A stretch of DNA of 64,000 nucleotides from Ferruginibacter sp. (GTDB taxonomy: Bacteria; Bacteroidota; Bacteroidia; Chitinophagales; Chitinophagaceae), in assembly GCA_019638575.1 (NCBI GenBank), contig JAHBTN010000003.1:155254-219253 (forward strand), read 5' to 3'. The position numbers and the translations under genes were made by a program. The notes under the pieces were generated by a model that saw only the letters and a program-made list of their open reading frames with translations, did not search any database and was not told the DNA's origin. Positions 26,235 through 51,104 of this stretch are shown here, piece after piece (position 1 is the stretch's first letter; every line of letters begins with the position of its first letter).

Positions 26235-26555
26235 TCTGCTAAATTAAACAATCCCTCCATTATTTATAAAAAAACTGTAAAGGGTTGTGCATAAATTAAC
26301 GGATGGTTTACATGAAATATTACCCTTTTACATTTTAATTGTAAATACATATTAAAACAAACACATTAAATAATGCCTTTGTTTCCGTAAATTTGTAATC
26401 CGTTAATCAGCTAATAAAATAATGCCGGTTAGCCTTTCAATAAATCACTTTTTAAAAGTAAAGTGAAAACATGGGGTAAGCCTGCTTATGTTTTTTTCGG
26501 AAAACCTCGTTAGCAAATTAGCACAATAGCAAATCAGCACTTTAAACAAATTACC
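26235..26555. other. Gap upstream of aconitase with imperfect heptad repeat
   Basis: A 321-bp divergent spacer. TAAATTTG at 26388-26395 is a -7-like match without a clear -33. Near the aconitase start, TAGCAAATTAGCAC (26511-26524) is repeated as TAGCAAATCAGCAC (26527-26540), i.e. 7-bp units TAGCAAA/TyAGCAC in tandem. No gene seen. Confidence 0.6.
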
Positions 26556-28823
26556 ATGGCCTTCGACATTGACATGATTAAAAAGTTGTACAACAACTTT
26601 AGCAGCCGTATTGATGCTGCCCGTAAAGCAACAGGTAAACCCCTTACTTTAACCGAAAAAATATTATATGCCCACCTTTGGCAGGGAGCGGCTACCACCG
26701 CTTATGTAAGAGGGAAAGATTATGTAGAGTTTGCCCCAGACCGTGTGGCCATGCAGGATGCAACGGCACAAATGGCATTGCTGCAATTTATGCAGGCAGG
26801 CAGGGCAAAAGTTGCGGTACCATCTACCGTGCATTGCGACCACCTGATACAGGCTGAAGTTGGTGCAGCGGCTGACCTAACAAAAGCTAAATCTCAAAAC
26901 AAGGAAGTATATGATTTTCTTGCTTCTGTTTCTAATAAATATGGTATAGGTTTTTGGAAACCCGGTGCTGGCATCATTCACCAGGTGGTTTTAGAACAAT
27001 ATGCTTTCCCCGGGGGTATGATGATAGGCACCGATAGTCATACTGTAAACGCTGGCGGGCTTGGTGTAGTGGCTATTGGTGTTGGTGGTGCCGATGCTTG
27101 TGATGTGATGGCAGGGCTGCCCTGGGAACTTAAATTTCCAAAACTGATTGGTGTAAAACTTACCGGTAAATTAAATGGTTGGACCGCTTCTAAAGACATT
27201 ATACTTAAAGTGGCTGGCATATTAACGGTAAAAGGCGGAACCGGCGCCATACTTGAATATTTTGGCGATGGCGCCACTTCATTATCATGTACCGGAAAAG
27301 GAACTATTTGTAACATGGGAGCCGAGATTGGCGCCACCACTTCTATTTTTGGTTATGATACAAAGATGGATGAATATTTAAGAGGAACCGGCAGAGCCGA
27401 AGTTGCAGACGGAGCCAATGCTATTGCTGAACACCTAACCGGCGATGCCGAAGTGTATGCCAACCCCGAAAAATATTTTGACCAGGTAATTGAAATTAAT
27501 TTAAGTGAGCTGGAACCACATATCAACGGGCCCTTTACCCCCGACCTGGCATGGCCTATCTCAAAATTTGCCGAAGCAGTGAAAACCAATGGCTGGCCCG
27601 AAAAACTGGAAGTAGGTTTAATAGGCTCCTGCACCAATTCATCTTACGAAGATATTACCCGTGCAGCTTCTATTGCCAAACAAGCAACAGATAATGGAAT
27701 AAAAGCAAATTCCGAATTTACAGTTACACCAGGTTCGGAACAGGTTCGCTATACCGTAGCAAGAGATGGTTACCTGGATACATTTGAAAAAATGGGAGCA
27801 TTGGTTTTAGCCAATGCCTGTGGCCCTTGTATTGGCCAGTGGGCAAGGCATACAACAGATCCCAACAAAAAGAATTCAATCGTTACATCGTATAACCGCA
27901 ATTTCAGTAAAAGAAACGACGGTAACCCTAATACACATGCATTTGTGGCTTCGCCCGAAATTACAACCGCATTGGCTATTGCCGGTACTCTTACTTTTAA
28001 TCCACTTACCGATTACCTTACCAATGCCAAAGGCGAAAAATTTAAACTGGCCGAACCGCTTGGTATAGAAATGCCGCAAAAAGGATTTGCAGTAGAAGAT
28101 GCAGGGTTTCAACCCCCTGCAGCCGATGGCAGTAAAGTGGAAGTAATTGTTTCTCCTACATCCGACCGATTGCAATTACTTGAACCATTTAAAGAATGGG
28201 AAGGCACCGATTTAAAAGGATTGAAACTTTTAATAAAAGCTAAAGGTAAATGCACCACCGATCATATTTCAATGGCTGGACCCTGGTTAAAGTTTCGTGG
28301 CCATTTAGATAATATCAGCAATAATATGCTGATTGGTGCAATCAATTTCTTTAATGATAAAACAGATACCGTAAAAAATCAACTCACAGGAGAATATGGA
28401 ACAGTGCCTGGCACCCAAAGAGCTTATAAAGCTGCTGGTGTTGGTTCAATTGTAGTTGGAGATGAAAACTATGGTGAGGGCTCATCAAGAGAGCATGCAG
28501 CTATGGAGCCAAGATTCCTGGGTGTACGGGCAGTGTTGGTGAAATCTTTTGCCCGTATTCATGAAACCAATTTAAAAAAACAGGGAATGTTGGGCCTTAC
28601 TTTTGCTGATAAAGAAGATTATAACAAAATACAGGAAGACGACAGTATCGATATCATTGGCTTAACCACTTTTGCTCCCGGAAAACAATTGCAGATGGTA
28701 TTTAACCACGCCGATGGAACATCTGATACCATTAATGTAAACCATACTTACAACGAACAACAGATTGAATGGTTTAAAGCCGGTGCAGCACTCAATATTA
28801 TCCGTAAGCAACACGGAAACTAA
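26556..28823 (+). CDS. Aconitate hydratase
   Basis: TCA-cycle enzyme interconverting citrate and isocitrate via a [4Fe-4S] cluster. The cluster ligands are Cys359 in [12 protein letters not shown] and Cys422/Cys425 in [11 protein letters not shown]. The swivel domain contains [17 protein letters not shown]. At 755 residues it has the length and character of the mitochondrial-type aconitase common in Bacteroidota, rather than the ~900-residue AcnA or the AcnB arrangement. A terminator hairpin and then a GT-rich repeat follow. Confidence 0.95.
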
Positions 28824-28852
28824 CAATAAACATCATAAACAAAATTTGTTTT

Positions 28853-28886
28853 AATACCTGCCAATTTACTGGTGGGTATTTTTTTA
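28853..28886 (+). terminator. Terminator after aconitase
   Basis: Arms AATACCTGCCA and TGGTGGGTATT (one G-T wobble) with a six-base loop, followed by a seven-T run. Confidence 0.75.
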
Positions 28887-28897
28887 TAGTCTGAAAT

Positions 28898-29003
28898 GGT
28901 TGGGGTTGGGGGTTGGTGATTGGTGGATGTTTGTTTGTGGTTGGTGGTTGGGGGGGCCTTTGTTCGTTGGTGGTTGGCCGTTGTTGGTCGCCTGACCAAC
29001 AAC
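28898..29003 (+). repeat. GT-rich heptad repeat with terminal hairpin, copy 1
   Basis: Tandem 7-bp units such as TTGGGGG, TTGGTGA, TTGGTGG, TTTGTGG run in phase from 28906 to 28947 and again from 28967 to 28994. The last 30 bases (28974-29003) are identical to the end of copy 2 at 33691-33720. They contain perfect 10-bp arms GTTGTTGGTC and GACCAACAAC around a GCCT loop (28980-29003). G-runs could also form G-quadruplexes. Not coding: the 7-bp period breaks any frame. The remaining ~125 bp before the S9 peptidase gene show nothing further. Confidence 0.85.
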
Positions 29004-29128
29004 TTGGCTGTTGTAATAAGCTGTGATTATTTTTCAGCATCGTTTACTATCACATTATATGCATTGTAAAACATTCTCCGTAAATTACCTGCTGTTATCC
29101 ATTTTCAATTTCCATCAAAATCAATTGT

Positions 29129-31945
29129 ATGTATAAACAACTGCTGGTATTTTGCATTTTAATAATTGTATTAATTGCCCCTGTAAATGCACAAAAGAAA
29201 AACCTTACTCCTGATGACTATATAAAATGGCAGAGCATTGGCGCCTTGAATATTTCTGATAACGGAGAATGGGTTGCCTACCAAATTACTGTACAGGAAG
29301 GCAATGATAGCATGTATGTTGTTAATCGAAATACAAAGAAAGTGTACAAGCTGGAGTTTGCTTCTTCCCCCGAATTCAGTAAGGACAATCAATGGATTGC
29401 TTACCGGGTTGGCCTGCCTTTTAAGGAAGTCGAAAAGCTACGAGAAGATGGCAAACCTATAGAATATAAAATGGGTTTGCTCAATTTACAAACCGGCAAA
29501 AAGGAAACCATACAAAATGTGAGGCAATTCGGGTTTTCACGCAATGGAAAATTTATAGCGGTAAGTCTGGCCCCACCTAAAGAAAACAAGGATAAAGGAT
29601 ATGTTTTACTACTTAAAAATTTAAGCGATAGCAGTACACATACCATTGGCAATGTTACTGAATACGCATTCAATAAAAAAAGCGACTACCTTGTTTATAT
29701 TGTTGAAAGCGCCAATACTGCTGGCAATTCGGTAGAACTTTTTAACCTGGCTAATTATTCACTCAAAATAATTGCAAGTGATACACTGAAGTTTTCGAAA
29801 TTAGTCTGGCAAAAAGAAGGTGATGGCTTTGCTTTTTATAAAACCTTTACCAAAGATGATTTTGAAGAAGAAAATGCCGTAGTTTATTCTTACATCAATT
29901 TATACAAAAACCCGGCACTGAAAATATTTAACCCTGTTGAAACATCAGACTTCCCTGCAGGCATGAGGGTATTTAATAAATCGGGGTTAAGTTTAAGTGA
30001 TGATATGAGTTCGGTATTTTTTGGCATAAAAAGCTGTACAGCCAAACCCAAAAAAGATGAAAAAAAGGCCGGTTCAGATTCAACAAAAGTAAAAAGCGAT
30101 TCTCTTGCTAATAAAACGGGAGTAACAAAAGAAAAATCAGACTCCACAAAAACAGGTATCGCCAAAAAAGAAAACAAAGATGAAAAACTACCTGCCGTGG
30201 ATGTTTGGCATTGGAAAGACCCTGAAATACAGCCCCGGCAAAAGATAACTTATAACCAGGACAAAGATGCCAGCTATCTTTCTGTTTGGAATATAGATAA
30301 TAATAAATTCTTTCTAATGGCCAATGATTCATTGCGTGGCGCTATGTTAACAGGAAATATGAAGTATTGTATTATTTACAGCACCCAAAAATATAAACCT
30401 GCATTTAAAGAAGACAATGCCGATTTCTACCTGTTTAATGTAAAAACCGGTGAAAGCAAATTGCTCTTGAAAAAAAATAATACGGCACTCAGGGCATCGC
30501 CCAACGGAAAATATATTGCCTACTTTAAAGACAATCAATGGTGGAGTTACAATATTGCCACACAGCAGCATATAAATCTTACACAAAATATTGGCACCAG
30601 TTTTTGGAACACCCGGGATGATCATCCGGGCATCAGGCCTGCCGTAGGTTTTGGCGGTTGGACAAAAGGTGATAAAGAAATGTTTGTGTATGATGAGTAC
30701 AATACCTGGGCTTTTAAACCCGATGGTAAAGGCTCCCGTAAAATAACAGATGGAGAAAAAGAAGAAATCATATTCAGGATAAACAGGCTTGACTTTGAAG
30801 ATCCGTTCATAGACGATAGCAAGCCCATTTATTTTTCTGCTTATGGCGATAAATCAAAAAAGACAGGTTATTATAAGTATGAAAAGAATAAACTTGAAAA
30901 ATTAATTTTTGACGATTATGCAATAGGCAGGCTTGCAAAAGCAAAAGATGCCGGCACTTTTATATATACAAAATCAGATTATAATATTTCGCCTGAATTA
31001 TATGTTACCGGCAATTTTGTTCAGGCAGATAAATTAGTAGCAACTAATCCGCAACAACAGGATTATTACTGGGGCAAAAGCCAACTGGTAAGTTTCACCA
31101 ATACAAAAGGAAAAAAAATGCAGGGAGCACTTTTTTATCCTGCCAATTATGAACCTGGTAAAAAATATCCAATGATTGTTTATATCTACGAGATACTTTC
31201 CAACACGGTACATGGATATATCAATCCTTCTTCAAGAAGCGCTTATAATACCAGTAATTATACAACCAACGGATATTTTATTTTCAGACCCGATATTGTA
31301 TATGATATTAATGACCCGGGCATGAGTGCCGTAAATTGTGTGGTTCCGGCCGTGGAAGAAGTGCTGAAAACTGGCATGATAGATAAAGACAAAATTGGTT
31401 TGATGGGGCATAGTTGGGGCGCTTACCAAACTTCTTTTATAATTACCCAAACCGATTTGTTTAAAGCAGCCTGTGCCGGCGCTCCGCTAACCGATCTCAT
31501 CAGTATGTCTATGTCTATATACTGGAACAGTGGTACCCCAGATCAAAAAATATTTGAAACCAGCCAGGGCAGGTTTGACGGCCCCTGGTACGACAGGCTG
31601 GAAGAACATAAAAGAAATTCGCCCATGTTTAATGCTACCAATATAAAAGCGCCGCTGTTGGTTGCCTTTGGTGATAAAGACGGAGCGGTAGATTGGCACC
31701 AGGGTATTGAAATGTATGGCACCATGCGCCGTATGCAAAAGCCACATGTAATGCTTGTATATGCCGATGAAAACCACGGCTTGGCTAAAAAAGAAAACCA
31801 GATAGATTACCAGAAACGGCAAAAGGCATGGTTTGATTATTACCTGCTGGGCAAACCTGCCGAGCAATGGATAACAGATGGAACAAGCTACCTGGATAAA
31901 ATGAAAGAAAGGGAAAAACAAACAAATCAAAAATCAAAGAAATAA
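29129..31945 (+). CDS. Secreted S9 family serine peptidase
   Basis: Prolyl-oligopeptidase-type enzyme with a signal peptide (LLVFCILIIVLIAPVNAQ). The long N-terminal part has repeated beta-propeller-like blades (DNGEWVAYQIT, DNQWIAYRV, NGKYIAYFKDNQWW) and a low-complexity K/S/D-rich insert at about 310-350. The C-terminal alpha/beta hydrolase has nucleophile Ser762 in GLMGHSWGAYQ, Asp849 or Asp851 in FGDKDGAVDWHQ, and His883 in ADENHGLA. 938 residues. Stands alone between two heptad-repeat spacers. Confidence 0.88.
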   Translation: MYKQLLVFCILIIVLIAPVNAQKKNLTPDDYIKWQSIGALNISDNGEWVAYQITVQEGNDSMYVVNRNTKKVYKLEFASSPEFSKDNQWIAYRVGLPFKEVEKLREDGKPIEYKMGLLNLQTGKKETIQNVRQFGFSRNGKFIAVSLAPPKENKDKGYVLLLKNLSDSSTHTIGNVTEYAFNKKSDYLVYIVESANTAGNSVELFNLANYSLKIIASDTLKFSKLVWQKEGDGFAFYKTFTKDDFEEENAVVYSYINLYKNPALKIFNPVETSDFPAGMRVFNKSGLSLSDDMSSVFFGIKSCTAKPKKDEKKAGSDSTKVKSDSLANKTGVTKEKSDSTKTGIAKKENKDEKLPAVDVWHWKDPEIQPRQKITYNQDKDASYLSVWNIDNNKFFLMANDSLRGAMLTGNMKYCIIYSTQKYKPAFKEDNADFYLFNVKTGESKLLLKKNNTALRASPNGKYIAYFKDNQWWSYNIATQQHINLTQNIGTSFWNTRDDHPGIRPAVGFGGWTKGDKEMFVYDEYNTWAFKPDGKGSRKITDGEKEEIIFRINRLDFEDPFIDDSKPIYFSAYGDKSKKTGYYKYEKNKLEKLIFDDYAIGRLAKAKDAGTFIYTKSDYNISPELYVTGNFVQADKLVATNPQQQDYYWGKSQLVSFTNTKGKKMQGALFYPANYEPGKKYPMIVYIYEILSNTVHGYINPSSRSAYNTSNYTTNGYFIFRPDIVYDINDPGMSAVNCVVPAVEEVLKTGMIDKDKIGLMGHSWGAYQTSFIITQTDLFKAACAGAPLTDLISMSMSIYWNSGTPDQKIFETSQGRFDGPWYDRLEEHKRNSPMFNATNIKAPLLVAFGDKDGAVDWHQGIEMYGTMRRMQKPHVMLVYADENHGLAKKENQIDYQKRQKAWFDYYLLGKPAEQWITDGTSYLDKMKEREKQTNQKSKK

Positions 31946-32303
31946 TTTTTTATCAATGTAAACACTATCAAATAATGGATTTAATTTTTAGTTTTTGAAT
32001 TGAAAACTGTAAACACTTATATGTTATGTTTATCATTAACCGGTTATGCATTTGATATAACAAACTGAAAGAAAAGAAGTATTACTGTAATGTTATAAAA
32101 GAGAATATCAAAATATAATTGAAAATTAAGTTGCTTAAAAAACAACAGTAACATCTTGATATTTGAAGAGTATTTAAAAGATAATAGTGAAATATTTCCA
32201 TAAAAAAATGAATACCATCACTTGCAAGTGCGCCTGTTCATTATTGAACATTAAAATAAGCAGGAAAATTAATAACTATTCTGATAAATCATAAAGAAAG
32301 TAA
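31946..32303. other. 358-bp AT-rich gap with no convincing gene
   Basis: Very AT-rich spacer. A 28-codon ATG frame at 32208-32294 contains Cys-Lys-Cys-Ala-Cys but has no supporting signal. CACTTGCAAGTG at about 32219-32230 is a 12-bp palindrome. No terminator is obvious. Confidence 0.5.
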
Positions 32304-33536
32304 ATGAAACATTTTATTATTTGCCTGGCAGTAATTTTTTTGAGTCAAATTTCAATTGCACAACCAAATAAGAAAGCCCTTTTTGTAATTGTGGATGGTA
32401 TCCCTGCAGATGTTGTTGAAAAAGTAAATACACCCAACCTTGATGCCATTGCCAAAGTTGGCGGATATACAAGGGCACATGTGGGTGGAGAAAAAGGAGG
32501 TTATTCAGAAACACCTACCATTTCTGCAGTAGGCTACAACAGTTTGCTTACAGGAACCTGGGTAAACAAACACAATGTATGGGATAATGATATAGCCGCA
32601 CCTAATTATAACTACTGGACCATCTTTCGGCTTTTTAAAGAACAATATCCGGGCAGGAAAGCGGCGGTATTTTCCAGTTGGGAGGATAACAGGACGAAAT
32701 TGGTGGGTGAACACCTTGCTGCTACAGGCAACCTTAAACTGGATTATCATTTTGACGGACTGGAACTGGATACAGTGAATTATCCGCACGATAAGAAAAG
32801 AGATTTTATGCACCGTATTGATGAAGCTGTAGTGAGTAATGCAGAGAACTATATAAAGAAAGAAGCGCCAGATCTTTCCTGGGTATATCTTGAATATACA
32901 GATGACATGGGGCATGCGCATGGAGATAGTCCTGAATTTTATAAAGCAGTGGAAATGATGGATAACCAGGTGGGGAGATTATGGTCGGCTATACAATACC
33001 GTGAAAAAAAATTTAATGAAGACTGGGTGATTTATATTACCACCGATCATGGAAGAACGGCCAGCAATGGAAAGGGACATGGCGGTCAATCGGATCGTGA
33101 ACGAAATACCTGGATTGTTTCCAATGCAAAAGGATTGAATGAATATTTTAAAACCGGCAATCCGGGCATTGTAGATATTATGCCTTCCATTGCAAAGCAC
33201 CTTAATATTACTATACCCCGTGAAAGATTAATGGAAGTTGATGGAATTCCGCTGACCGGAAATATTTCGGCTACTTCTGCAAATGCTGCCCTTTATGATG
33301 GAAAGATTCATGTAAGCTGGATAGCTATTGCTAAAAAAGGAAATGCAAAAATTTGGCTGGCAACCACCAATCATTTTAAAGAAGGTGGCACGGATGAATA
33401 TAAGCTGATGGCAACTGTGCCGCTTGCAAAACAGGAAGCCGATATTGATATAATGAAAAATCCTTCATCCTTTTATAAAATTGTTATTGAAGCTCCTGGT
33501 AATATGCTTAATCGCTGGATAGTGGAGAAGAAATAA
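32304..33536 (+). CDS. Secreted alkaline phosphatase/nucleotide phosphodiesterase family protein
   Basis: Signal peptide MKHFIICLAVIFLSQISIAQ, then an alkaline-phosphatase superfamily catalytic domain. Metal and nucleophile positions are recognisable: VIVDGIPADVV (Asp), the Thr nucleophile region YSETPTISAVGYNSLLTG, EYTDDMGHAHG, and the paired site YITTDHGRTA followed by GKGHGG. It belongs to the type I phosphodiesterase/nucleotide pyrophosphatase group; substrate unknown. 410 residues; the C-terminal ~90 residues are a beta extension. A second GT-rich repeat follows. Confidence 0.85.
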   Translation: MKHFIICLAVIFLSQISIAQPNKKALFVIVDGIPADVVEKVNTPNLDAIAKVGGYTRAHVGGEKGGYSETPTISAVGYNSLLTGTWVNKHNVWDNDIAAPNYNYWTIFRLFKEQYPGRKAAVFSSWEDNRTKLVGEHLAATGNLKLDYHFDGLELDTVNYPHDKKRDFMHRIDEAVVSNAENYIKKEAPDLSWVYLEYTDDMGHAHGDSPEFYKAVEMMDNQVGRLWSAIQYREKKFNEDWVIYITTDHGRTASNGKGHGGQSDRERNTWIVSNAKGLNEYFKTGNPGIVDIMPSIAKHLNITIPRERLMEVDGIPLTGNISATSANAALYDGKIHVSWIAIAKKGNAKIWLATTNHFKEGGTDEYKLMATVPLAKQEADIDIMKNPSSFYKIVIEAPGNMLNRWIVEKK

Positions 33537-33592
33537 AAATCCTTCATTTTCTTTTATTGTTCCCCTTTGCTTTTAATGTAAAACCTATATCG

Positions 33593-33720
33593 TTGGCGGT
33601 TGGCGGTGGTCGGTGGCCGTTGATGGTTGGCGGTTGATGGGTGGTGGGTGTTGGTTGGCCGTTGTTGGTTGGCAGCTGGGCCGTAGGCTGTTGGCCGTTG
33701 TTGGTCGCCTGACCAACAAC
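33593..33720 (+). repeat. GT-rich heptad repeat with terminal hairpin, copy 2
   Basis: Seventeen consecutive 7-bp units run without a break from 33593 to 33711, every unit starting with T (for example TTGGCGG, TGGTCGG, TGATGGT, TGGCCGT, TTGTTGG). The final 30 bases (33691-33720) are identical to copy 1, including 10-bp arms GTTGTTGGTC and GACCAACAAC with a GCCT loop. It lies between the phosphodiesterase stop and the yceI-like promoter. The only open frames in it are proline/threonine-rich shadows. Confidence 0.88.
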
Positions 33721-33769
33721 AATAGCAATCAACAATAAATTTTATTAACAATAAGTTTAAATAATTAAT

Positions 33770-33800: not shown

Positions 33801-33819
33801 CATTCTAAATACAAAAATC

Positions 33820-34356: not shown

Positions 34357-34405
34357 TACCTGTATTTTTTCCAGGTTTAAAATATACAGCAGAAACCCGA
34401 ATAAC

Positions 34406-42881: not shown

Positions 42882-42884
42882 ATT

Positions 42885-43514: not shown

Positions 43515-43919
43515 ATATTCCAAAGCCAGTTCATAACCTTTCAATCCCAATCCGCTGATAACACCTCTTGCTTTTGCTGAAACATGCGACAGTTTACGAA
43601 AATCTTCACGGCCAAAAATATTGGAGATATGCACTTCTACAACCGGTGCGGTAATAGCAGCAATGGCATCACCAATGGCTACAGAGGTATGGGTGTACCC
43701 CCCGGGATTAAATATGATGCCATCAACATGAAAGCCCACCCGCTGAATTTCATTTATCAATTCGCCTTCTATATTGCTTTGGTAAAATGAAATTTCAACA
43801 GCCGCATATTTTTCTTTTAAAGTATTAAGGTAGCTGTCGAACGACTGACCGCCATAAATATCCACTTCACGTTTGCCGAGAAGGTTGAGGTTTGGGCCAT
43901 TGATAATTGCAATTTTCAT
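43491..43919 (-). CDS. aroQ: Type II 3-dehydroquinate dehydratase
   Basis: Shikimate pathway step removing water from 3-dehydroquinate. The family blocks are all present: IINGPNLNLLGKREVDIYGG (active-site Arg17 and Tyr22), FYQSNIEGELINEI, IIFNPGGYTHTSVA, VEVHISNIFGREDFR. 142 residues from ATG 43919; a GTG two codons earlier is less likely. Its 3' end overlaps the convergent parvulin gene by 24 bp. Confidence 0.95.
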   Translation of the reverse strand: MKIAIINGPNLNLLGKREVDIYGGQSFDSYLNTLKEKYAAVEISFYQSNIEGELINEIQRVGFHVDGIIFNPGGYTHTSVAIGDAIAAITAPVVEVHISNIFGREDFRKLSHVSAKARGVISGLGLKGYELALEYLQNNPQH

Positions 43920-43981
43920 AACCACAAATTAAACTATTTGTAGCAAAATATACAGATAAACAAAAAGCCCGGTATCCAAAC

Positions 43982-45085
43982 TCAGTTATTACGGATAAGT
44001 GATATAAACTCGTCGAAAAGATACCTGCTGTCGTGTGGGCCGGGAGTGGCTTCGGGGTGATATTGCACAGAAAAAGCTTTCTTGTCTTTTAACCGTATGC
44101 CCTCGATACTTTCGTCGTTTAAATTGATATGCGTTATCTCTATATTTTTATTGGCTCTTACTGCATCGGGGTTAATACCAAAACCATGGTTTTGCGTTGT
44201 AATCTCCGACTTGCCACTGATAACATTTTTAACAGGATGGTTAAGCCCCCTGTGGCCATGGTGCATTTTAAAAGTAGGTATATTGTTTGCAAGCGCCAAT
44301 AACTGGTGGCCTAGGCAGATACCAAACAAGGGTTTGTTAGCAGCTAAAATTTGTTTAACAGTTTTAATGGCATAATCCATCGGTGCAGGGTCGCCGGGGC
44401 CGTTACTGATAAAATAACCATGTGGTTTAAACTGCTCAGCTTCTTCAAAACTTGTTTTTGCATGATGCACTTTTACATAAGCGCCTCTTTCAACAAGGCA
44501 GTTTAAAATATTTTTCTTGATACCAAAATCAAACACTGCAATTCTTATATCGCTGTTTTCATCTCCTATACAATACGACTCAGCGGTACTAACGGCCGAT
44601 GCAAGTTCAAGCCCATCCATTGATGGCACCTGTGCAAGCAATTTATTCAATTGTGCTACATCAGTAATTTCAGATGAGATGATACAGTTCATAGCGCCCT
44701 GCGTACGAATATGTGCTACCAAGGCCCTTGTATCAATACCATCAATGGCCACTACCTGTTGTGCTTCAAAATATTCCTGCAACGAAGTATCGGCCATAAA
44801 TCGGCTGTACCTGTCTTCGAGGTTACGGCCAATAACTGCTTTCACTTTTACGCTATCGCTTTCTACATCCACTGCTTTTACACCGTAATTGCCAATATGC
44901 ACATTGTTCATGATAAGTACCTGCCCATAATAGCTGGGGTCGGTAAATACTTCCTGGTAACCCGTCATACCGGTATTAAAACATATTTCACCGGTGGCAG
45001 TGCCTATTTTGCCAAAGGCAGTACCGTTAAATATAGTTCCGTCTTGTAAAATTAAAATGGCAGGGGTTGTATTTTTTTCAGGCAT
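43982..45085 (-). CDS. carA: Carbamoyl-phosphate synthase small subunit
   Basis: Glutaminase subunit that feeds ammonia to CarB for arginine and pyrimidine synthesis. N-terminal CPSase domain (ILQDGTIFNGTAFG, CFNTGMTGYQEVFTDPSY), C-terminal class I glutamine amidotransferase with Cys257 in FGICLGHQLLALA, His343 and Glu345 in QYHPEATPGP. 367 residues. Located just after rplQ in the same direction but beyond a strong terminator. carB is not in the window. Confidence 0.95.
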   Translation of the reverse strand: MPEKNTTPAILILQDGTIFNGTAFGKIGTATGEICFNTGMTGYQEVFTDPSYYGQVLIMNNVHIGNYGVKAVDVESDSVKVKAVIGRNLEDRYSRFMADTSLQEYFEAQQVVAIDGIDTRALVAHIRTQGAMNCIISSEITDVAQLNKLLAQVPSMDGLELASAVSTAESYCIGDENSDIRIAVFDFGIKKNILNCLVERGAYVKVHHAKTSFEEAEQFKPHGYFISNGPGDPAPMDYAIKTVKQILAANKPLFGICLGHQLLALANNIPTFKMHHGHRGLNHPVKNVISGKSEITTQNHGFGINPDAVRANKNIEITHINLNDESIEGIRLKDKKAFSVQYHPEATPGPHDSRYLFDEFISLIRNN

Positions 45086-45166
45086 GTATTAAAATGGTTT
45101 TGCAAAGAAACAAATAGAAAAGTGTTTTAAACAAATAAAATTTCTCACAAAATTAGCACGCAAATA

Positions 45167-45198
45167 AAAAGCCCCGATATTATAACCGGGGCTTTTAT
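45167..45198 (-). terminator. Terminator of the infA-rplQ operon
   Basis: Arms AAAGCCCCG and CGGGGCTTT around a ten-base AT loop, with T-rich sequence beyond on the minus strand, 20 bp past the rplQ stop. Confidence 0.88.
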
Positions 45199-45218
45199 AT
45201 AAACTGTTAGTTTCAATC

Positions 45219-45749
45219 TTATGCTTTTGTTTCTTCTGATGATTCTGTTTTTTCTTCATTAGTAGTTTCGGCAACTTTTTCAGTTGTATCAGCATTGGCT
45301 TTTTTCTTAGCTCCTCCTCTCCTACGTGTTTTCTTAGCAGGCTCTGCAGCGGTGCCAATTCCTTTACCATAAATTTCATTAAAGTCAACCAGTTCAATCA
45401 ATGCTAATTCGGCATTATCTCCGGTTCTTGCACCTAACTTAATAATACGGGTGTATCCGCCGGGGCGGCCTGCAACTTTTGGGGCTACTACTGTAAATAA
45501 TTCTTTAACGGCAGCTTTATCGTTAAGGTAGCTAAACACAATGCGGTGATTGTGCATGATGGCTTCCTTACTGGCATTGCTTTTTGTTTTTGTAATCAAT
45601 GGCTCAATGTAAGTGCGTAAAGCCTTAGCCTTAGCCAATGTGGTTGTAATTCTTTTGTGGGTTATTAACTGGCAACCCAGGTTCATCAACAGCGCCCTGC
45701 GGTGAGAGGCCGTTCTGCTTAAATTGTTTACTTTGTTTCCGTGACGCAT
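45219..45749 (-). CDS. rplQ: 50S ribosomal protein L17
   Basis: Large-subunit protein near the exit tunnel. The N-terminal [20 protein letters not shown] and [16 protein letters not shown] blocks are diagnostic. At 176 residues it is ~50 longer than E. coli L17, due to a C-terminal K-rich then acidic tail ([17 protein letters not shown]), a Bacteroidota feature. Last gene of the operon. Confidence 0.97.
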
Positions 45750-45818
45750 GACATTTTAGTTTTTATTTCGCCTGTACCGTGTCAGGAATTACAGGCTACT
45801 TGTTATTGTTTTATTGGA

Positions 45819-45883
45819 TGGTTTGTTGGTTTAATGATGAAATATTTTGAAAAAAAACAATATTTCATCAAATTTTCAAACCA
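45819..45883. repeat. Nested inverted repeat in the rpoA-rplQ spacer
   Basis: Inner arms TGATGAAATATT (45835-45846) and AATATTTCATCA (45859-45870) pair perfectly over 12 bp with a 12-base loop; outer arms TGGTTTG (45819-45825) and CAAACCA (45877-45883) add 7 bp. It begins 5 bp past the rpoA stop on the transcribed minus strand. Confidence 0.8.
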
Positions 45884-45888
45884 CTTGT

Positions 45889-46884
45889 TTACTCATCATC
45901 TAATTTCAGCTTGCTTAAATCCATTCCAAAGCTTAAGCCTCTTTCGTTAAGCACCTGTTCAATTTCACTTAAAGATTTTTGGCCAAAGTTCCTGAACTTC
46001 ATCAGGTCTTCCTGTTCGTACTGTACCAGTTCGCTTAAAGAATTAATTTTAGCGGCTTTTAAACAGTTGAAGGCACGAACAGATAAGTCAAGATCTTCTA
46101 ATGGTGTTTTCAATACTTTACGTAACTGTAATGTTTGTTCATCCACCAGGTCTTCTTTCTTATCTTCTTTGGTATCAAAAGTGATATTCTCGTCGGTAAT
46201 AATCATCAGGTGCTGTATTAAAATACGGCTTGCCTGCTTTACAGCATCTTCGGGGTGAATGGTACCATCGGTAATCACTTCCATAATCAGCTTTTCAAAA
46301 TCAGTGCGTTGCTCCACACGGGTGTTTTCAATTGAATATTTTACATTCTTAATTGGTGTGTAAATAGCATCCACAGCAATATATCCAAAGTGGTTATTTT
46401 TTTCTTTGTTCTCTTCGGCAGGCACATAACCACGGCCTTTGCCAATGGTGATTTCAATATCAAGCTTAGCGCTATTGTCCATTGTGCAAATCAGCAAATC
46501 GGGGTTCATGATTTCAAAAGTTGGAGAAGCTTCTCCAATCATACCTGCTGTAAATTCGGTTTTGTTTTTTATTGAAAGTGTAACCTTTTCAACACTTACA
46601 TCATGCTCCACTTTCTTTTTTATACGTACCTGCTTCAGGTTAAGTATTATTTCGGTAACGTCTTCAGTAATACCTTTAAGAGTGGCAAACTCGTGGTCGG
46701 CACCGGCAATGTTGATACCGATAATTGCATACCCTTCTAAAGAGTTAAGCAGCACCCTGCGAAGAGAGTTTCCGATGGTTACGCCATATCCCGGCTCAAG
46801 CGGGCGGAATTCGAAGATGGCTTCAAATTCGGTTGCTTTTTGAAGAACGATTTTATCTGGTTTAACAAAATTTAAAATGGCCAT
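45889..46884 (-). CDS. rpoA: DNA-directed RNA polymerase subunit alpha
   Basis: Core polymerase assembly subunit. N-terminal dimerisation domain (ATEFEAIFEFRPLEPGYGVT, LRRVLLNSLEGYAI) and C-terminal domain with ELVQYEQEDLMKFRNFGQKS and SEIEQVLNERGLSFGMDL. 331 residues, normal length. Flanked by inverted-repeat spacers on both sides. Confidence 0.97.
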   Translation of the reverse strand: MAILNFVKPDKIVLQKATEFEAIFEFRPLEPGYGVTIGNSLRRVLLNSLEGYAIIGINIAGADHEFATLKGITEDVTEIILNLKQVRIKKKVEHDVSVEKVTLSIKNKTEFTAGMIGEASPTFEIMNPDLLICTMDNSAKLDIEITIGKGRGYVPAEENKEKNNHFGYIAVDAIYTPIKNVKYSIENTRVEQRTDFEKLIMEVITDGTIHPEDAVKQASRILIQHLMIITDENITFDTKEDKKEDLVDEQTLQLRKVLKTPLEDLDLSVRAFNCLKAAKINSLSELVQYEQEDLMKFRNFGQKSLSEIEQVLNERGLSFGMDLSKLKLDDE

Positions 46885-46913
46885 ATTAAATTTTTATTTT
46901 TTAAATGTTTATG

Positions 46914-46975
46914 AAAAATCAAAAGTCAAATCCAAAAATCAAATTGTATTGGTTTTTGAATTGTAAGTTTTTAAT
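46914..46975. repeat. Heptad-period A/T tract in the rpsD-rpoA spacer
   Basis: Units of about 7 bp, such as AAAAATC, AAAAGTC, AAATTGT, TTTGAAT, TTTTAAT, fill the 93-bp spacer (one unit is 6 bp). The left half is A-rich and the right half T-rich, so CAAAAA (46933-46938) can pair with TTTTTG (46953-46958). Confidence 0.6.
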
Positions 46976-46977
46976 TT

Positions 46978-47583
46978 TTACTTAGAATATAATTCCACAA
47001 TCAATTGCTCCTTTATGTTTTCAGGAACACTCTCCCGCTCAGGGTAAGTGATAAACGTACCTTTCATTTCGGCTTCGTTCCACTCTAACCAGTTAAACTT
47101 GGCGTTCTTACCACGCAGGTTAGTTGTAATATTTGTATTAGCTGCCGCTTTATTTTTTAATCCTACTACATCACCTGCTTTGCAACTGAATGACGGGATA
47201 TTCACTATCTCTCCATTTACAGTGATATGCTTGTGCGATACCAATTGGCGTGCAGCCTGGCGGCTTGGTGCAATTCCTAAACGGAATACGGTGTTATCTA
47301 AACGGGCTTCTAATAACTTAATAAGGTTTTCGCCGGTTACCCCTTTGCGGCGTGCAGCTTCATCAAAAGTTTTGCGGAACTGCTTTTCAAGCAAACCATA
47401 AGTGTACTTGGCTTTTTGCTTTTCTCTTAACTGCAAAGCGTATTCGCCTAAAGTTTTACGCTTACGGTTAGCGCCATGCATACCCGGAGGGTTGCTGTTT
47501 TTGGTTAACCATTTTCCATTACCTGTAATGGGTTCTCCAAATATCCTGGAGATTTTTGTTTTGGGGCCTGTGTAACGTGCCAT
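46978..47583 (-). CDS. rpsD: 30S ribosomal protein S4
   Basis: Primary 16S rRNA-binding protein. Begins MARYTGPKTKISRIFGEPIT; the S4 RNA-binding motif is LDNTVFRLGIAPSRQAARQL with SHKHITVNGEIVNIPS. 201 residues. In E. coli S4 represses its operon; here the spacers have unusual hairpins that could be involved, but this is untested. Confidence 0.97.
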   Translation of the reverse strand: MARYTGPKTKISRIFGEPITGNGKWLTKNSNPPGMHGANRKRKTLGEYALQLREKQKAKYTYGLLEKQFRKTFDEAARRKGVTGENLIKLLEARLDNTVFRLGIAPSRQAARQLVSHKHITVNGEIVNIPSFSCKAGDVVGLKNKAAANTNITTNLRGKNAKFNWLEWNEAEMKGTFITYPERESVPENIKEQLIVELYSK

Positions 47584-47663
47584 AATTGTAGTGTAGGTCT
47601 TTTAGTGACGATGCATCATTATAAAGACCATTTAAAATGAATAATGCACCCTTTTATTTATTT

Positions 47664-47714
47664 TGTATGTTGAATGCTAAATGTTTTAATCCAACATTTA
47701 GCATTCAACATACA
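47664..47714. repeat. Perfect 22-bp stem hairpin in the rpsK-rpsD spacer
   Basis: Left arm 47664-47685 and right arm 47693-47714 are exact reverse complements of 22 bases around the 7-base loop TTAATCC. The arms read as 7-bp units (TGTATGT, TGAATGC, TAAATGT). On the transcribed strand it begins 6 bp past the rpsK stop. No T-run follows on either strand, so it is not a standard terminator. Confidence 0.9.
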
Positions 47715-47720
47715 GTATAA

Positions 47721-48119
47721 TTATACTCTTCTTTTCTTTGGAGGACGGCAGCCATTGTGTGGTAAAGGCGTTACGTCTTTAATCATCGAAATTTCAATTC
47801 CGCTTTGTGATAATGAACGGATGGCTCCTTCACGGCCGCTTCCAGGGCCTTTTACATAAACATCCACCCTTTTTAAACCTGCATCCAAAGCAGTTTTAGC
47901 TGCATCGGCTGCTGCCATTTGGGCTGCATAAGGTGTGTTCTTTTTTGAACCCCTGAAACCCATTTTACCTGCACTGCTCCAGCTTATTACCTGGCCCTGC
48001 TTGTTGGTTAAACTGATAATGATGTTGTTGAAACTTGCTGTAATGTGAGCATCTCCGTAGCTGTCAACTTTTACTACTCTTTTTTTAGCGGCTGCTTTTG
48101 CGCCTTGTGCTTTTGCCAT
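47721..48119 (-). CDS. rpsK: 30S ribosomal protein S11
   Basis: Platform protein at the mRNA exit. Begins [14 protein letters not shown]; diagnostic [36 protein letters not shown] and the C-terminal [19 protein letters not shown]. 132 residues. Confidence 0.97.
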
Positions 48120-48151
48120 AATTAATTCTAAATAGGTAATCTTTTAAAAAA

Positions 48152-48230
48152 TGTTTCAAGCTTTAAGCCTGACTGAAACAACCCTCCTGCGGCTTCCTGC
48201 TATCTGGTATTGTTTCAAAAAATTTTTGAA
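48152..48230. repeat. Three-way alternative hairpin in the rpsM-rpsK spacer
   Basis: TGTTTCA at 48152-48158, TGAAACA at 48174-48180 and TGTTTCA at 48211-48217 allow the middle element to pair with either neighbour. The last overlaps a further palindrome, arms TTCAAAAA (48214-48221) and TTTTTGAA (48223-48230). The spacer is 155 bp. Confidence 0.65.
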
Positions 48231-48274
48231 GCCTTATAATCGGCATAGTTGCTTTTTAGCAAATATGCATATTA

Positions 48275-48652
48275 TTACTTAGTCACTTTTTTCTTACCGG
48301 CAACAGTTTTACGCTTACCTTTTTTGGTACGGCTGTTGGTACGTGTACGCTGGCCACGTAAAGGCAATCCTTTACGATGACGTAAACCACGGTAACAGGC
48401 TATATCAAGCAAACGCTTAATGTTTAACTGTGTTTCGCTGCGTAAAGCGCCTTCGGTTTTAAACTCGTTATTGATAATGTTACGGATAGCTGTTTGTTCA
48501 TCATCGTTCCATTCATGCACTTTTTTGTTATAGTCAATACCTGCTTTGTTTAAGATATACTGTGCAGATGAACGGCCAATTCCGTAAATATAAGTAAGGC
48601 CAACTTCGCCTCTTTTGTTTTTTGGTAAATCTATACCGGCAATACGAGCCAT
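48275..48652 (-). CDS. rpsM: 30S ribosomal protein S13
   Basis: Head protein contacting the P-site tRNA. Opens [20 protein letters not shown]; contains [17 protein letters not shown] and the C-terminal basic [20 protein letters not shown]. 125 residues. Confidence 0.97.
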
Positions 48653-48658
48653 AATATG

Positions 48659-48686
48659 AATTAAAAATTAAAAATTTAAAATTAAA
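48659..48686. repeat. AATTAAA heptad array in the rpmJ-rpsM spacer
   Basis: Four 7-bp units in phase: AATTAAA, AATTAAA, AATTTAA, AATTAAA. It begins just upstream of the rpsM start codon. Confidence 0.65.
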
Positions 48687-48713
48687 AAATATCTCCCCTG
48701 GCTAATTAAAGGG

Positions 48714-48830
48714 TTAACCTTGCTTTTGCTTAAAGCGTGGATTTTTTTTATTGATTACATACAGCTTACCTTTTCTTCTCACAATCTTGCAATCTGCGCT
48801 GCGTTTTTTAATGGATGCCCTTACTTTCAT
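48714..48830 (-). CDS. rpmJ: 50S ribosomal protein L36
   Basis: A 38-residue protein: [17 protein letters not shown] followed by [18 protein letters not shown]. It has a Cys14 but the later zinc-ligand cysteines of the C+ form are replaced (RRKGK...), i.e. the C-minus-like form, while still matching L36. Sits between infA and rpsM in the normal order. Confidence 0.93.
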
Positions 48831-48856
48831 AAAACTTGTTTTTTTCTTTATGCAAA

Positions 48857-48899
48857 TTGTAAATCCCGAATCGTGAAAAAAATTGTTTACGATTTACAA
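48857..48899. repeat. Inverted repeat in the infA-rpmJ spacer
   Basis: Arms TTGTAAATC (48857-48865) and GATTTACAA (48891-48899) pair over 9 bp; an alternative inner pairing is AATCGT (48869-48874) with ACGATT (48889-48894). The sequence reads in approximate 7-bp units. Confidence 0.65.
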
Positions 48900-48912
48900 C
48901 TAACAATTATTT

Positions 48913-49131
48913 TTATTTATACCTGAAAATGATTCTTCCCCTTGTTAAATCATAAGGACTCATCTCTACACCTACTTTATCGCCCGGCAAAATGCGTATA
49001 TAATGCATCCTCATTTTTCCAGAAATAGTGGCTAAAATTTCATGGTCATTTTCCAGTTTTACCTTAAACATAGCATTGCTTAACGCCTCAATAATTACTC
49101 CATCTTGTTTAATAAGTGCCTGTTTAGCCAT
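48913..49131 (-). CDS. infA: Translation initiation factor IF-1
   Basis: OB-fold factor that occupies the ribosomal A site during initiation. The 72-residue product begins [20 protein letters not shown] and contains [20 protein letters not shown] and [15 protein letters not shown]. An in-frame upstream extension lacks family similarity. It heads the minus-strand operon and has a -7 element directly upstream. Confidence 0.97.
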
Positions 49132-49144
49132 AATTTTTGGAGCG

Positions 49145-49152
49145 CAAAGATA
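49145..49152 (-). promoter_or_regulatory. -7 promoter element of the infA-rplQ operon
   Basis: On the minus strand the sequence is TATCTTTG, a full match to TAnnTTTG, 13 bp before the infA ATG. The nearest TTTG is 22 bp upstream (plus 49175-49178), a little farther than the ideal 19. A very short leader is implied. Confidence 0.65.
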
Positions 49153-49344
49153 GGAGGATTTATTTAAATAACAGCAAAAAACAGTTCTAATTACCAACAA
49201 TTGAGGGGTTTTTCCACAAAATACTGACCATATAATATTATTATTTAATTTAAAAAAGAGTTTTTTGTTTAAAATTGTGAAAACCGGTGTTTGATATCAA
49301 AATAAAAGAAATCACATTTTTATATCAAAAACAATCTTTTATAC

Positions 49345-49374
49345 AAATGGCTCCTATTAATATAGGAGCCATTT
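49345..49374 (-). terminator. Hairpin downstream of the 49397 gene
   Basis: Perfect 13-bp arms AAATGGCTCCTAT (49345-49357) and ATAGGAGCCATTT (49362-49374) around TAAT. Position fits termination of the minus-strand gene; the T-run is weak. Confidence 0.75.
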
Positions 49375-49396
49375 ATTTTATAGTTTATTAACTGGG

Positions 49397-49804
49397 TTAA
49401 TCAAACTTTTCGTCATTCAAATGAACCTTGGTCATTTCGTAATAATGATTTTGAAGCTGGTGTACGTTGATGGGTTGCATAATCTTACGATGCTCATCCC
49501 GGTACCAAATTTCAAATTTTGAAAAATCATTTTTTGCAGGCAGCATCATCCTAAAAGCCCCCTTCATATATTTCACTGTTCCATCTTCATTTTCCTGTTT
49601 TTGAAATTGCAATTTCATCAACTGGCTATCATCTAAAGGTATCGGGCTCAGTTGCTCTACTTCGTACCAAAATTCCTGTACACCGTTGTCAACACAAACC
49701 TGTTTTGACCCTAGTTCAAGGTTGGTTACTTCTCCTTGCTTTTTATCGCCGTCGTTATCTACTATTAAATAATCTCCTACTTTAATTTCATGAAATTGTA
49801 TCAT
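49397..49804 (-). CDS. Conserved protein of unknown function
   Basis: A 135-residue cytoplasmic-looking protein. The N-terminal half resembles a small beta-barrel (FHEIKVGDYLIVDNDGDKKQ, VTNLELGSKQVCVDNGVQEF), as in proteins that bind nucleic acid or adapt translation; the C-terminal half is amphipathic (LQNHYYEMTKVHLNDEKFD). No family name is certain. It stands between hmgA and infA with its own terminator. Confidence 0.65.
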   Translation of the reverse strand: MIQFHEIKVGDYLIVDNDGDKKQGEVTNLELGSKQVCVDNGVQEFWYEVEQLSPIPLDDSQLMKLQFQKQENEDGTVKYMKGAFRMMLPAKNDFSKFEIWYRDEHRKIMQPINVHQLQNHYYEMTKVHLNDEKFD

Positions 49805-49891
49805 AGTTTTTTAATTTAAGTAAAAGCAATATAATATTTTTTAAGCAAGAGAACAAAATAGAATAATTGGTTCTTTCATAATAAAATCCTT

Positions 49892-51049
49892 TTATTCTGC
49901 CCAACTCATTACATAGCCCTCATTTTCTATATCCAGCGCTTCTTTTGTTAACTGTAATGGGTGAAAAGTATCTACCATAACTGCCAGTTCTTTGGTTTCC
50001 TTAGCACCAATACTTTTTAAAACAGCACCGGGATGAGGCCCATGCGGAATGCCCGCCGGATGCAGTGTTATCATGCCACGGGTTACATGCTTGCGGCTCA
50101 TAAAATCACCATCTACATAATATAACACTTCATCGCTGTCGATATTGCTGTGGTTATACGGCGCCGGGATGGCCTGTGGGTGATAATCGTACAGGCGTGG
50201 GCAAAAAGAACAAACCACAAAATTATTTGCCTCAAAGGTTTGATGCACAGGCGGCGGCTGGTGCACCCTTCCGGTGATAGGCTCAAAATCATGTATGGAG
50301 AATGCAAATGGATAGCAACATCCATCCCATCCCACCACATCAAACGGATGATGGGCATAATGCAATCCGTACATAATTCCTTTCTTTTTTGTTTGTATCA
50401 GGAAATCGCCGGCTTCATCAGTAGTTTGCAGGTTTTTGGGCTGCCTGATATCTCTTTCACAAAAAGGTGAATGCTCAAGCAACTGCCCCAACTTGCTCAT
50501 ATATCTTTTTGGATAACGAATGGGGCTAAAAGATTCAACTATAAACAAACGGTTGTTTTCTGTTGTAAATTCCACCTGGTAAATAGATCCCCGTGGAATT
50601 ACAAGGTAATCGCCATAAGAAAAATCAAGGTTACCGTATTGCGTTTTTAAAACACCTGAACCTTCGTGTACAAAAATCATTTCATCGGCATCGGCATTTT
50701 TATAAAAATACCCGTCCATACTTTGTTGTGGCGCAGCCAGTACAATATGGCAATCGTTGTTAACCAGTACTGCCTTCCGGCTTTTTAAATAATCTATTTC
50801 GGGTTTGATGTTAAACCCTTCAAAACTGCGGTGCTTCAGCATTTTTTCTTCGGCAACTTTTGGTTGTACATTTACCGGTTCATCGGTTTTAATTATTTCT
50901 GTTGGCGGATGACAATGATAAAGGATTGAATAATCGTTGCTGAAACCTTCGGTAGAAAATAATTGTTCGGAATATAATTCCCCATCGGGCTTGCGAAATT
51001 GAATATGCCGTTTGTGGGGGATGGAACCTAAAGTATGATAGTGTGGCAT
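49892..51049 (-). CDS. hmgA: Homogentisate 1,2-dioxygenase
   Basis: Fe(II) ring-cleavage enzyme of tyrosine/phenylalanine catabolism, producing maleylacetoacetate. The cupin core shows VHEGSGVLKTQYGNLDFSYG, PRGSIYQVEF and the iron-binding region HPAGIPHGPHPG. 385 residues, in the bacterial range. Other pathway genes (hppD, maiA, fahA) are not in the window. Upstream is a heptad ATAATGT array. Confidence 0.88.
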   Translation of the reverse strand: MPHYHTLGSIPHKRHIQFRKPDGELYSEQLFSTEGFSNDYSILYHCHPPTEIIKTDEPVNVQPKVAEEKMLKHRSFEGFNIKPEIDYLKSRKAVLVNNDCHIVLAAPQQSMDGYFYKNADADEMIFVHEGSGVLKTQYGNLDFSYGDYLVIPRGSIYQVEFTTENNRLFIVESFSPIRYPKRYMSKLGQLLEHSPFCERDIRQPKNLQTTDEAGDFLIQTKKKGIMYGLHYAHHPFDVVGWDGCCYPFAFSIHDFEPITGRVHQPPPVHQTFEANNFVVCSFCPRLYDYHPQAIPAPYNHSNIDSDEVLYYVDGDFMSRKHVTRGMITLHPAGIPHGPHPGAVLKSIGAKETKELAVMVDTFHPLQLTKEALDIENEGYVMSWAE

Positions 51050-51062
51050 GATAATTTATTTT

Positions 51063-51104
51063 ATAATTGATAATGTATAATGTATAATGTATAATGTATA
51101 ATTG
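51063..51104 (+). repeat. ATAATGT heptad array
   Basis: Six exact 7-bp units: ATAATTG, then ATAATGT four times (51070-51097), then ATAATTG. It lies 14 bp upstream of the minus-strand hmgA start codon, in the 236-bp gap to the next gene. Confidence 0.9.

What the first reader, a model, noticed from the sequence alone, without database searches (positions are those of the whole stretch)
26511..51104. Many spacers carry tandem arrays with a 7-bp period, each with its own unit
Seen directly: TAGCAAA/TyAGCAC (26511-26540), TTGGTGG-type (28906-28994), TTGGCGG-type, 17 units in exact phase (33593-33711), AAAAATC-type (46914-46975), TGAATGC-type (47664-47714), AATTAAA (48659-48686), ATAATGT x4 flanked by ATAATTG (51063-51104). 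The shared feature is the period, not the unit. This resembles the heptanucleotide STRR sequences of filamentous cyanobacteria, and suggests one generating process acting on unrelated seed words. A common mechanism (replication slippage tied to a 7-nt step, or a template-copying enzyme) is inference.
Basis: partly seen in the sequence, partly recalled or inferred. Interest (0 to 1): 0.72.

Follow-up and report, generated by a model that had tools for sequence, protein, structure and literature searches.

The report
Seven-base repeat arrays in gene spacers
Some of the gaps between this bacterium's genes hold short DNA words repeated every seven bases, sometimes as the two arms of a hairpin, and a sister species shows such words being gained and lost, often seven bases at a time; this is a known kind of bacterial repeat with some new features.

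Summary
The period-7 signal is real and specific. In 799 kb of this genome (near Ferruginibacter) 24 spacer arrays score >=13 at lag 7, against 0-4 at each of lags 4-6 and 8-13 and 0.5 in shuffles. A sister genome shows 44 against 0-6. Of the seven listed arrays six are best at lag 7; 26511-26540 is period 8, and the 33593 array is not in exact phase.

'Each with its own unit' is only partly right. Most AT-rich arrays share one drifting vocabulary, and TGAATKN arrays occur in 84 of 296 Bacteroidota genomes. The two TTGG-type arrays abut palindromes of one REP family that has its own RAYT gene.

Orthologous spacers turn over fast: one array is exactly 70 bp longer here, another is missing in the sister. 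Of 18 indel blocks at arrays 7 are multiples of seven, against 0 of 12 elsewhere. Neighbouring units are most alike, so units are copied locally.

Best reading: heptanucleotide repeats of the known STRR/GGGAATC kind, growing and shrinking by slippage or template switching, often at stem-loops. No RVT_1 reverse transcriptase was found in this genome. Why seven stays open.

The parts
26510..26540 (+). TTAGCAAA-type array, period 8 (not 7), just before the aconitase gene; unchanged in sister genome G340
   Evidence: TRF; lag identity; same array in G340
28902..28979 (+). TTGGNGG/CCAACNN array, period 7, between aconitase and S9 peptidase genes; missing in G340, where the neighbouring palindrome remains
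28980..29003 (.). REP palindrome GTTGTTGGTC-GCCT-GACCAACAAC at the end of the array
   Evidence: one of 17 copies in the genome with up to 2 mismatches
33592..33700 (+). TTGGCGG/CCAACNN array, period 7 with phase shifts; 70 bp (ten units) longer than in G340
33697..33720 (.). REP palindrome GTTGTTGGTC-GCCT-GACCAACAAC; in G340 GTAGTTGGTC-GCCT-GACCAACTAC (both arms changed, still pairing)
46886..46943 (+). weak AAARTCA-type period-7 stretch between rpsD and rpoA; one 1-base gap and one substitution against G340
47665..47713 (.). hairpin between rpsK and rpsD: arms 47665-47685 and 47693-47713 pair perfectly (21 bp) and are built of TGAATGC/TAAATGT words; G340 has one more 7-base unit and matching changes in both arms
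   Evidence: fold z -12.5; alignment
48659..48688 (+). AATTAAA array, period 7, upstream of rpsM
51062..51102 (+). ATAATGT/ATAATTG array, period 7; shorter and more varied in G340

Best explanation
These are heptanucleotide tandem arrays of the kind known from cyanobacteria and Xanthomonas. Shown: the 7-base period; its specificity; the shared drifting vocabulary; local copying of units; fast length change between sister species, often in multiples of 7; hairpin arms that stay complementary at some loci. Inferred: arrays start at short repeats or stem-loops in spacers (including a REP palindrome) and grow and shrink when the replication machinery slips or switches template by one or two units. 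Where two arms exist, copying between arms, or selection on a transcript hairpin, keeps them paired. Function is at most incidental (a hairpin or terminator-like structure at some loci). The cause of the preference for 7 is not shown; a polymerase-footprint effect has been proposed in print.
For: Lag-7 specificity in two genomes and in close relatives (21 arrays at lag 7, 0 at lags 4-6 and 8-13, 11 loci). Neighbouring units are more alike than in shuffled order (mean Hamming 1.74 against 2.51, z -12.5; two apart z -4.7; three apart z -0.6; 38 arrays). Array spacers differ by >=5 nt from the sister in 12 of 18, controls in 9 of 143. Indel blocks at arrays are multiples of 7 in 7 of 18 (27 and 43 in one array sum to 70), elsewhere 0 of 12. 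Examples of +70, -7, -42/+14/+7. Matching changes in both arms of the 47665 hairpin and of the 33697 palindrome. At rpsK-rpsD, 6 of 19 same-genus genomes carry period-7 stretches in different words, and these fold with z -2.5 to -7.3. No RVT_1 in this genome.
Against: 11 of 18 indel blocks at arrays are not multiples of 7. Gained or lost segments hold units that differ from each other, which plain slippage would not give at once; gain and loss could not be polarised. In this genome array windows do not fold better than other spacers (median z -1.03 against -0.84, p 0.60), so hairpins are not general. Slippage alone explains neither the preference for 7 nor the sharing of words across genera. 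Arrays are not biased to the stop-codon side (10 of 18).
Confidence: 0.55

Rival explanations
1. A dedicated copying enzyme (reverse transcriptase or RAYT/Y1 transposase) lays down the words with a 7-base step.
For: 7 of the 17 REP copies carry CCAACNN tails, on one side only, and a RAYT gene lies among REP copies (by eye). Y1_Tnp is commoner in genomes with TGAATKN arrays: 72 of 84 against 138 of 212, OR 3.2, p 3.5e-4, not corrected for kinship or genome size.
Against: RVT_1 is absent from this genome, which has the most hits, and is not associated (41 of 84 against 93 of 212, p 0.52). Four of the 20 genomes with >=10 hits have no Y1_Tnp match, including those with 71 and 42 hits; the Pfam model did miss the C8 RAYT here, so the test is not complete. 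Of 21 RAYT loci in the genus 6 have any lag-7 stretch nearby, none in the words of their palindrome.
Confidence: 0.1
2. Selection for stem-loops (terminators, mRNA 3' ends) makes and keeps the arrays; the 7-base words are only the material.
For: Strong species-specific hairpins after rpsK in several genomes (G000 z -12.5, L123 -8.8, L113 -7.3, L112 -6.5, L115 -6.4); matching changes in both arms; 0 of 30 arrays lie between convergent genes against 58 of 420 spacers, 23 tandem, 7 divergent.
Against: No general folding excess in this genome. Four of 19 genomes have only 18-21 nt and no stem at the rpsK site (L119, L122, L124, L128), so no hairpin is needed there. One-way arrays (ATAATGT) have no second arm. 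Selection for a stem gives no reason for period 7.
Confidence: 0.15
3. A dispersed satellite: existing arrays seed new ones elsewhere, so words and period are inherited together.
For: The same words at many loci and in 38 of 139 genera. The TTAGCAAA word keeps period 8 in this genome, in G340 and in a rotated form in L120. TGAATKN words keep period 7 in most genomes.
Against: CCAACNN, built from a REP arm, also has period 7 here. The spacer after the phosphodiesterase gene carries period-7 arrays in different words in L009, L012, L014, L015 and L016, though its downstream neighbour differs from the window's in all but L009. No shared flanks were seen around arrays, but this was not tested systematically.
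Confidence: 0.15
4. Chance or AT-rich composition.
For: Some listed items are weak (46914, 47664), and short AT-rich arrays are easy to see by eye.
Against: Dinucleotide shuffles give 0.5 arrays where 24 are seen, and no other lag of 4-13 exceeds 4. GC-rich arrays show it too. It is repeated in a sister genome.
Confidence: 0.01

Closest known systems
GGGAATC/GGGGA(C/T)T heptamer repeats of Xanthomonas and Nostoc (Rehm et al. 2015, PMC4692102; abstract, introduction, sections 10 and 16 and passages read)
   Same: Intergenic 7-base units with fixed and variable positions (GGGANTN); two arrays of opposite strand close together; length and sequence variation between sister species; other long unit sizes not enriched (their reading of Mrazek and Huang).
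   Different: There one G-rich, quadruplex-forming word; here AT-rich TGAATKN words and a CCAACNN family, no G4 bias tested, several words sharing the period in one genome.
TAACTGA and other heptamer direct repeats in Beggiatoaceae, Cyanobacteria and five Bacteroidetes (MacGregor 2015, PMC4679880; abstract and sections 11, 12 read)
   Same: Heptamer arrays in spacers, several heptamers mixed, also in Bacteroidetes; between two Cyanothece strains mostly indels in 7-nt increments.
   Different: Different main word; proposed there as sites upstream of start codons, which is not the pattern here.
STRR heptanucleotides of filamentous cyanobacteria (recalled; the Calothrix report was seen only as cited in PMC4692102)
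   Same: 7-base tandem units, several words in one genome.
   Different: Not compared directly here; no cyanobacterial sequence was searched.
REP/RAYT elements
   Same: 17 copies of GTTGTTGGTC-NNNN-GACCAACAAC; RAYT-like gene among them: NCBIfam NF047646, E 1.4e-20, 73.7 bits, under the cut-off of 80; PDB TnpArep 4er8, E 0.0016.
   Different: The 7-base tails are not a feature I know of REPs (recalled); most RAYT loci in the genus lack them.

Membership tests
Heptanucleotide spacer repeats (STRR/GGGAATC kind) | tandem 7-base units | tested here: met
   six of seven listed items
Heptanucleotide spacer repeats (STRR/GGGAATC kind) | mainly intergenic | tested here: met
   24 arrays in 64 kb of spacer against 4 in 734 kb of called ORFs
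Heptanucleotide spacer repeats (STRR/GGGAATC kind) | dispersed through the genome | tested here: met
   arrays on C1, C3, C12, C14, C23 of the stretches read
Heptanucleotide spacer repeats (STRR/GGGAATC kind) | variation in unit number between close relatives | tested here: met
   12 of 18 array spacers differ by >=5 nt
Heptanucleotide spacer repeats (STRR/GGGAATC kind) | G-quadruplex-forming unit (Xanthomonas/Nostoc subtype) | not tested
   most words here are AT-rich, so by inspection not of that subtype
REP element with RAYT | dispersed 20-40 bp palindrome in many copies | tested here: met
   17 copies at <=2 mismatches, reversed control 0
REP element with RAYT | cognate RAYT gene flanked by the palindrome | tested here: met
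   C8:43156-43680 has copies on both sides; RAYT model hit just under cut-off; the G015 relative has the same palindrome arms
REP element with RAYT | RAYT cleaves this palindrome | not testable with these tools
   needs biochemistry
Rho-independent terminator | stem-loop followed by T-run in the transcript | tested here: inconclusive
   47665 hairpin folds strongly, but no T-run test was made; array windows in general do not fold better than other spacers

The most novel reading that the evidence does not exclude
The step length is set by a trans-acting, lineage-specific ruler, not by the DNA words. One genome uses period 7 for unrelated words (TGAATKN, CCAACNN), while other Bacteroidota carry the same TGAAT word at period 8. 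In 296 genomes TGAATKN at period 7 gave 771 hits in 84 genomes and at period 8 170 hits in 24; of 23 genomes with >=10 hits 17 are purely 7, 2 purely 8 (G274 0/47, G254 0/31) and 4 mixed. A polymerase or accessory factor with a 7- or 8-base register at hairpins would then write spacer DNA. Against it: G274 period-8 units look like doubled 4-mers (5 arrays at lag 4); hits within one array are not independent; G204 is mixed; a 20-kb stretch of G137 gave 3 arrays at lag 7 and 1 at lag 8; the TTAGCAAA word has period 8 inside this period-7 genome.
Probability: 0.12. Interest if true: 0.85.

Novelty: new variant of a known kind. Interest (0 to 1): 0.5.

Why it matters
Why bacterial spacer repeats prefer seven bases has been noted since at least 2007 (as cited in PMC4692102) and not explained. 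This genome and its sister give many pairs of orthologous arrays in which the step, the copying direction and the pairing of arms can be measured, and the phylum offers lineages with the same word at 7 and at 8. That makes the question testable: is the step a property of the word, of the hairpin or of the replication machinery? If a lineage-specific factor sets it, that would be an unknown activity that shapes spacer DNA.

Tried and rejected
Whole spacer folding as a general explanation: rejected for this genome. Reverse transcriptase (RVT_1) as a needed factor: rejected for this genome, no match and no association. RAYT/Y1 as a needed factor for TGAATKN arrays: rejected, weak association only; the Y1 model misses some RAYTs, so not final. 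Stop-codon side preference: not seen (10 of 18). Polarising the 28906 array with outgroups: failed, the gene pair is not kept in L010-L018 or L027, and the S9 search found 2 of 30 genus genomes, one of them this one. Rfam on 46800-49200: nine hits, all far below gathering score, eight of them miRNA models on the 47665 hairpin; I read them as chance. Five other genomes (80 kb each): G208 has 6 lag-7 arrays, G204 2 (and 2 at lag 8), G071, G330 and G149 none, so TGAATKN hits elsewhere in a genome do not make every stretch periodic. Cytophagales loci showed no lag-7 preference (4 at lag 7, 4 at lag 10, 36 loci). The reversed-pattern control was useless (52 control hits against 43), because the reversed word is itself found in such arrays.

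Dropped before counts: segments with >=0.6 identity at lag 1, 2 or 3 (low complexity) in all array counts, which also drops some AT arrays such as 48659; ORF calls were a simple longest-first scheme, so some spacers are missed. Hits grouped by hand into ten CCAACNN loci; single weak hits (C13, C33, C34:68 kb, C35) and TCAACAT-type hits (C3:118888, C11, C24, C36) were left out.
Full report
What the window is. It is bases 155254-219253 of contig C23 of a 3.41-Mb genome whose phosphodiesterase gene (window 32304-33536) is 94% identical to Ferruginibacter sp. ACE_BAC2 (L009). Genes beside the listed arrays: aconitase, S9 peptidase, a phosphodiesterase, YceI, and the rpsM-rpsK-rpsD-rpoA cluster.

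Is period 7 real? In 426 spacers from 799 kb, self-identity exceeds dinucleotide shuffles at lags 7, 14, 21, 28 and 35 (z 7.1, 6.6, 6.0, 4.4, 3.4); lags 3, 4 and 6 are also raised (z 12.1, 7.4, 5.1), so the pure autocorrelation is less clean than the array count. Counting local arrays, 24 score >=13 at lag 7 against 0-4 at lags 4-6 and 8-13 and 0.5 in shuffles; at >=18, 17 against 0-1. The sister genome G340 (L009's genome) gives 44 against 0-6 and 28 against 0-1 in about 1.15 Mb. Eleven loci of close relatives give 21 against 0. Cytophagales loci give no lag-7 preference. The signal is carried by few spacers (24 of 335).

What are the words? Listed arrays in this genome fall mostly into one AT-rich network: TGAATTA, TGAATGT, TGAATTT, ATAATGT, ATAATTG, TGATTTT, TGACTTT. 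Single long arrays pass from one word to another in phase (ATCAAAA to GTCAAAA to TTCATAA to TTCACAA, G340 C32). Three exact TGAATKN units in a row occur 89 times here and in 84 of 296 Bacteroidota genomes, 38 of 139 genera; the reversed control pattern hits 12 of the 296 by my count of that table. So the words are not independent seeds. A second family, CCAACNN (TTGGNGG on the window's plus strand), is tied to a REP palindrome.

The REP link. GTTGTTGGTC-NNNN-GACCAACAAC occurs 17 times at <=2 mismatches. By eye 7 of the 17 carry a CCAACNN tail, on the same side each time, and 7 of 10 CCAACNN loci lie at a REP. Copies flank a RAYT-like gene at C8:43156-43680: NCBIfam NF047646 E 1.4e-20, just under cut-off. 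A relative in G015 (49% identity) is flanked by the same arms. In G340 the palindrome at the 28906 array is present while the array is not, so there REP and array are separable. A second RAYT in this genome (C14) has unrelated TTTCGTGA palindromes and no 7-base arrays. Of 21 RAYT loci looked at, 6 have some lag-7 stretch, none in its palindrome's words. RAYTs are therefore not general makers of arrays.

Turnover. I matched 161 of 426 spacers to G340. Those with an array in either genome differ by >=5 nt in 12 of 18, the rest in 9 of 143 (OR 30, p 9e-9; choosing spacers for arrays favours this somewhat). Length-changing blocks at arrays: 7 of 18 are multiples of 7 (binomial p 0.009; 27 and 43 in the 33593 array sum to 70, so 8 of 17 if merged, my arithmetic); elsewhere 0 of 12; Fisher p 0.024. 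The others at arrays are -120, -22, -22, -10, 6, 6, 16, 27, 33, 43, 74. Clear cases: the 33593 array is 70 bp longer here with flanks aligned without gaps; C23:128962 differs by 42, 14 and 7; the 47665 hairpin has one more 7-base unit in G340.

How are units copied? In 38 arrays of >=6 units from both genomes, adjacent units differ by 1.74 of 7 positions against 2.51 in shuffled order (z -12.5), units two apart 2.19 (z -4.7), three apart no different. That is local duplication of one or two units. In 19 of 38 arrays variation is concentrated in some unit positions (p < 0.05), though duplication of mutated units can inflate this.

Hairpins. The 47665 stem is perfect over 21 bp. G340 keeps a stem although both arms have changed (CTAAATG/CATTTAG to ATAAATG/CATTTAT; TGTTGA/TCAACA to TATTGA/TCAATA), the second together with the added unit. 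At the same site in 19 same-genus genomes, 6 show period-7 stretches in other words; L112, L113, L115 and L123 fold with z -6.4 to -8.8, L110, L114, L117 and L127 with -3.2 to -3.9, and L119, L122, L124, L128 have only 18-21 nt without a stem. Downstream of this variable part lies a conserved stretch before rpsD. But in this genome array windows as a class fold no better than others, so hairpins are a common form, not a rule.

Mechanism. Local copying, steps of 7, drift of words and paired arms fit replication slippage plus template switching between arms. Template switching at imperfect palindromes is recalled knowledge, not tested here. A reverse transcriptase of the RVT_1 family is not needed: none found in this genome. 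Y1_Tnp is weakly associated but dispensable. The cause of 7 is open. PMC4692102 cites a 2007 proposal that it reflects the stretch of DNA held by the polymerase.

Period 8. The same word at period 8 occurs in 24 of 296 genomes, 12 of which also have period 7, and in none of this genome's sequence. Counts are mostly one-sided (17 pure 7, 2 pure 8, 4 mixed among 23 genomes with >=10 hits). In three G274 stretches 6 arrays have lag 8 and none lag 7, but 5 also have lag 4. The period-8 word TTAGCAAA at window 26510 is unchanged in G340 and has the same period in L120. This hints that period is a heritable trait, of either word or lineage; I cannot tell which.

Against print. Papers in the held library describe heptamer arrays in Xanthomonas, Nostoc, Beggiatoaceae, Cyanobacteria and some Bacteroidetes, with inverted pairs and 7-nt indels (PMC4692102, PMC4679880; sections named under Closest known systems). 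My searches (open-licence papers only, 10-20 rows listed each) showed no account of TGAATKN arrays across Bacteroidota, of heptamer tails on REPs, or of one word at 7 in some lineages and 8 in others. Subscription papers were not searchable, so this is weak evidence of novelty.

Noticed in passing
window 47587-47660 (minus strand, before rpsD) and L110-L128: A conserved stretch with two complementary parts (GGGTGCATCATT..ATGATGCAYCG and AGACC..GGTC) lies before rpsD in most of 19 same-genus genomes and gave no Rfam hit there; it looks like a ribosomal-protein leader, perhaps for S4 (inference).
   Followed up: partly
L110-L128, rpsM-rpsK spacer: A second conserved element with CAGGAGGGTT lies before rpsK, preceded after the rpsM stop by a variable terminator-like hairpin (by eye).
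   Followed up: no
G000:C1:57146-57169 (L144): One copy of the REP palindrome seems to lie in frame inside a coding sequence that reads like orotidine-5'-phosphate decarboxylase (name recalled, no search run).
   Followed up: no
G000:C14:20344-20820 (L239, L143): A second RAYT family flanked by CTGTTTCGTGACTCACGAAACAG palindromes; relatives in the genus have GGTTCGTG..CACGAACC or GGTGCGTG..CACGCACC forms.
   Followed up: partly
L186 (G232:C19) and L192 (G311:C10): TGAATGA arrays sit inside longer repeated blocks of some hundred bases, so heptamer arrays are sometimes carried in larger repeats.
   Followed up: no
G000:C23:2356-2616 and its G340 counterpart: The sister spacer appears to hold a partly duplicated block including the REP palindrome and tail, perhaps a tandem duplication of the whole REP unit.
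   Followed up: no
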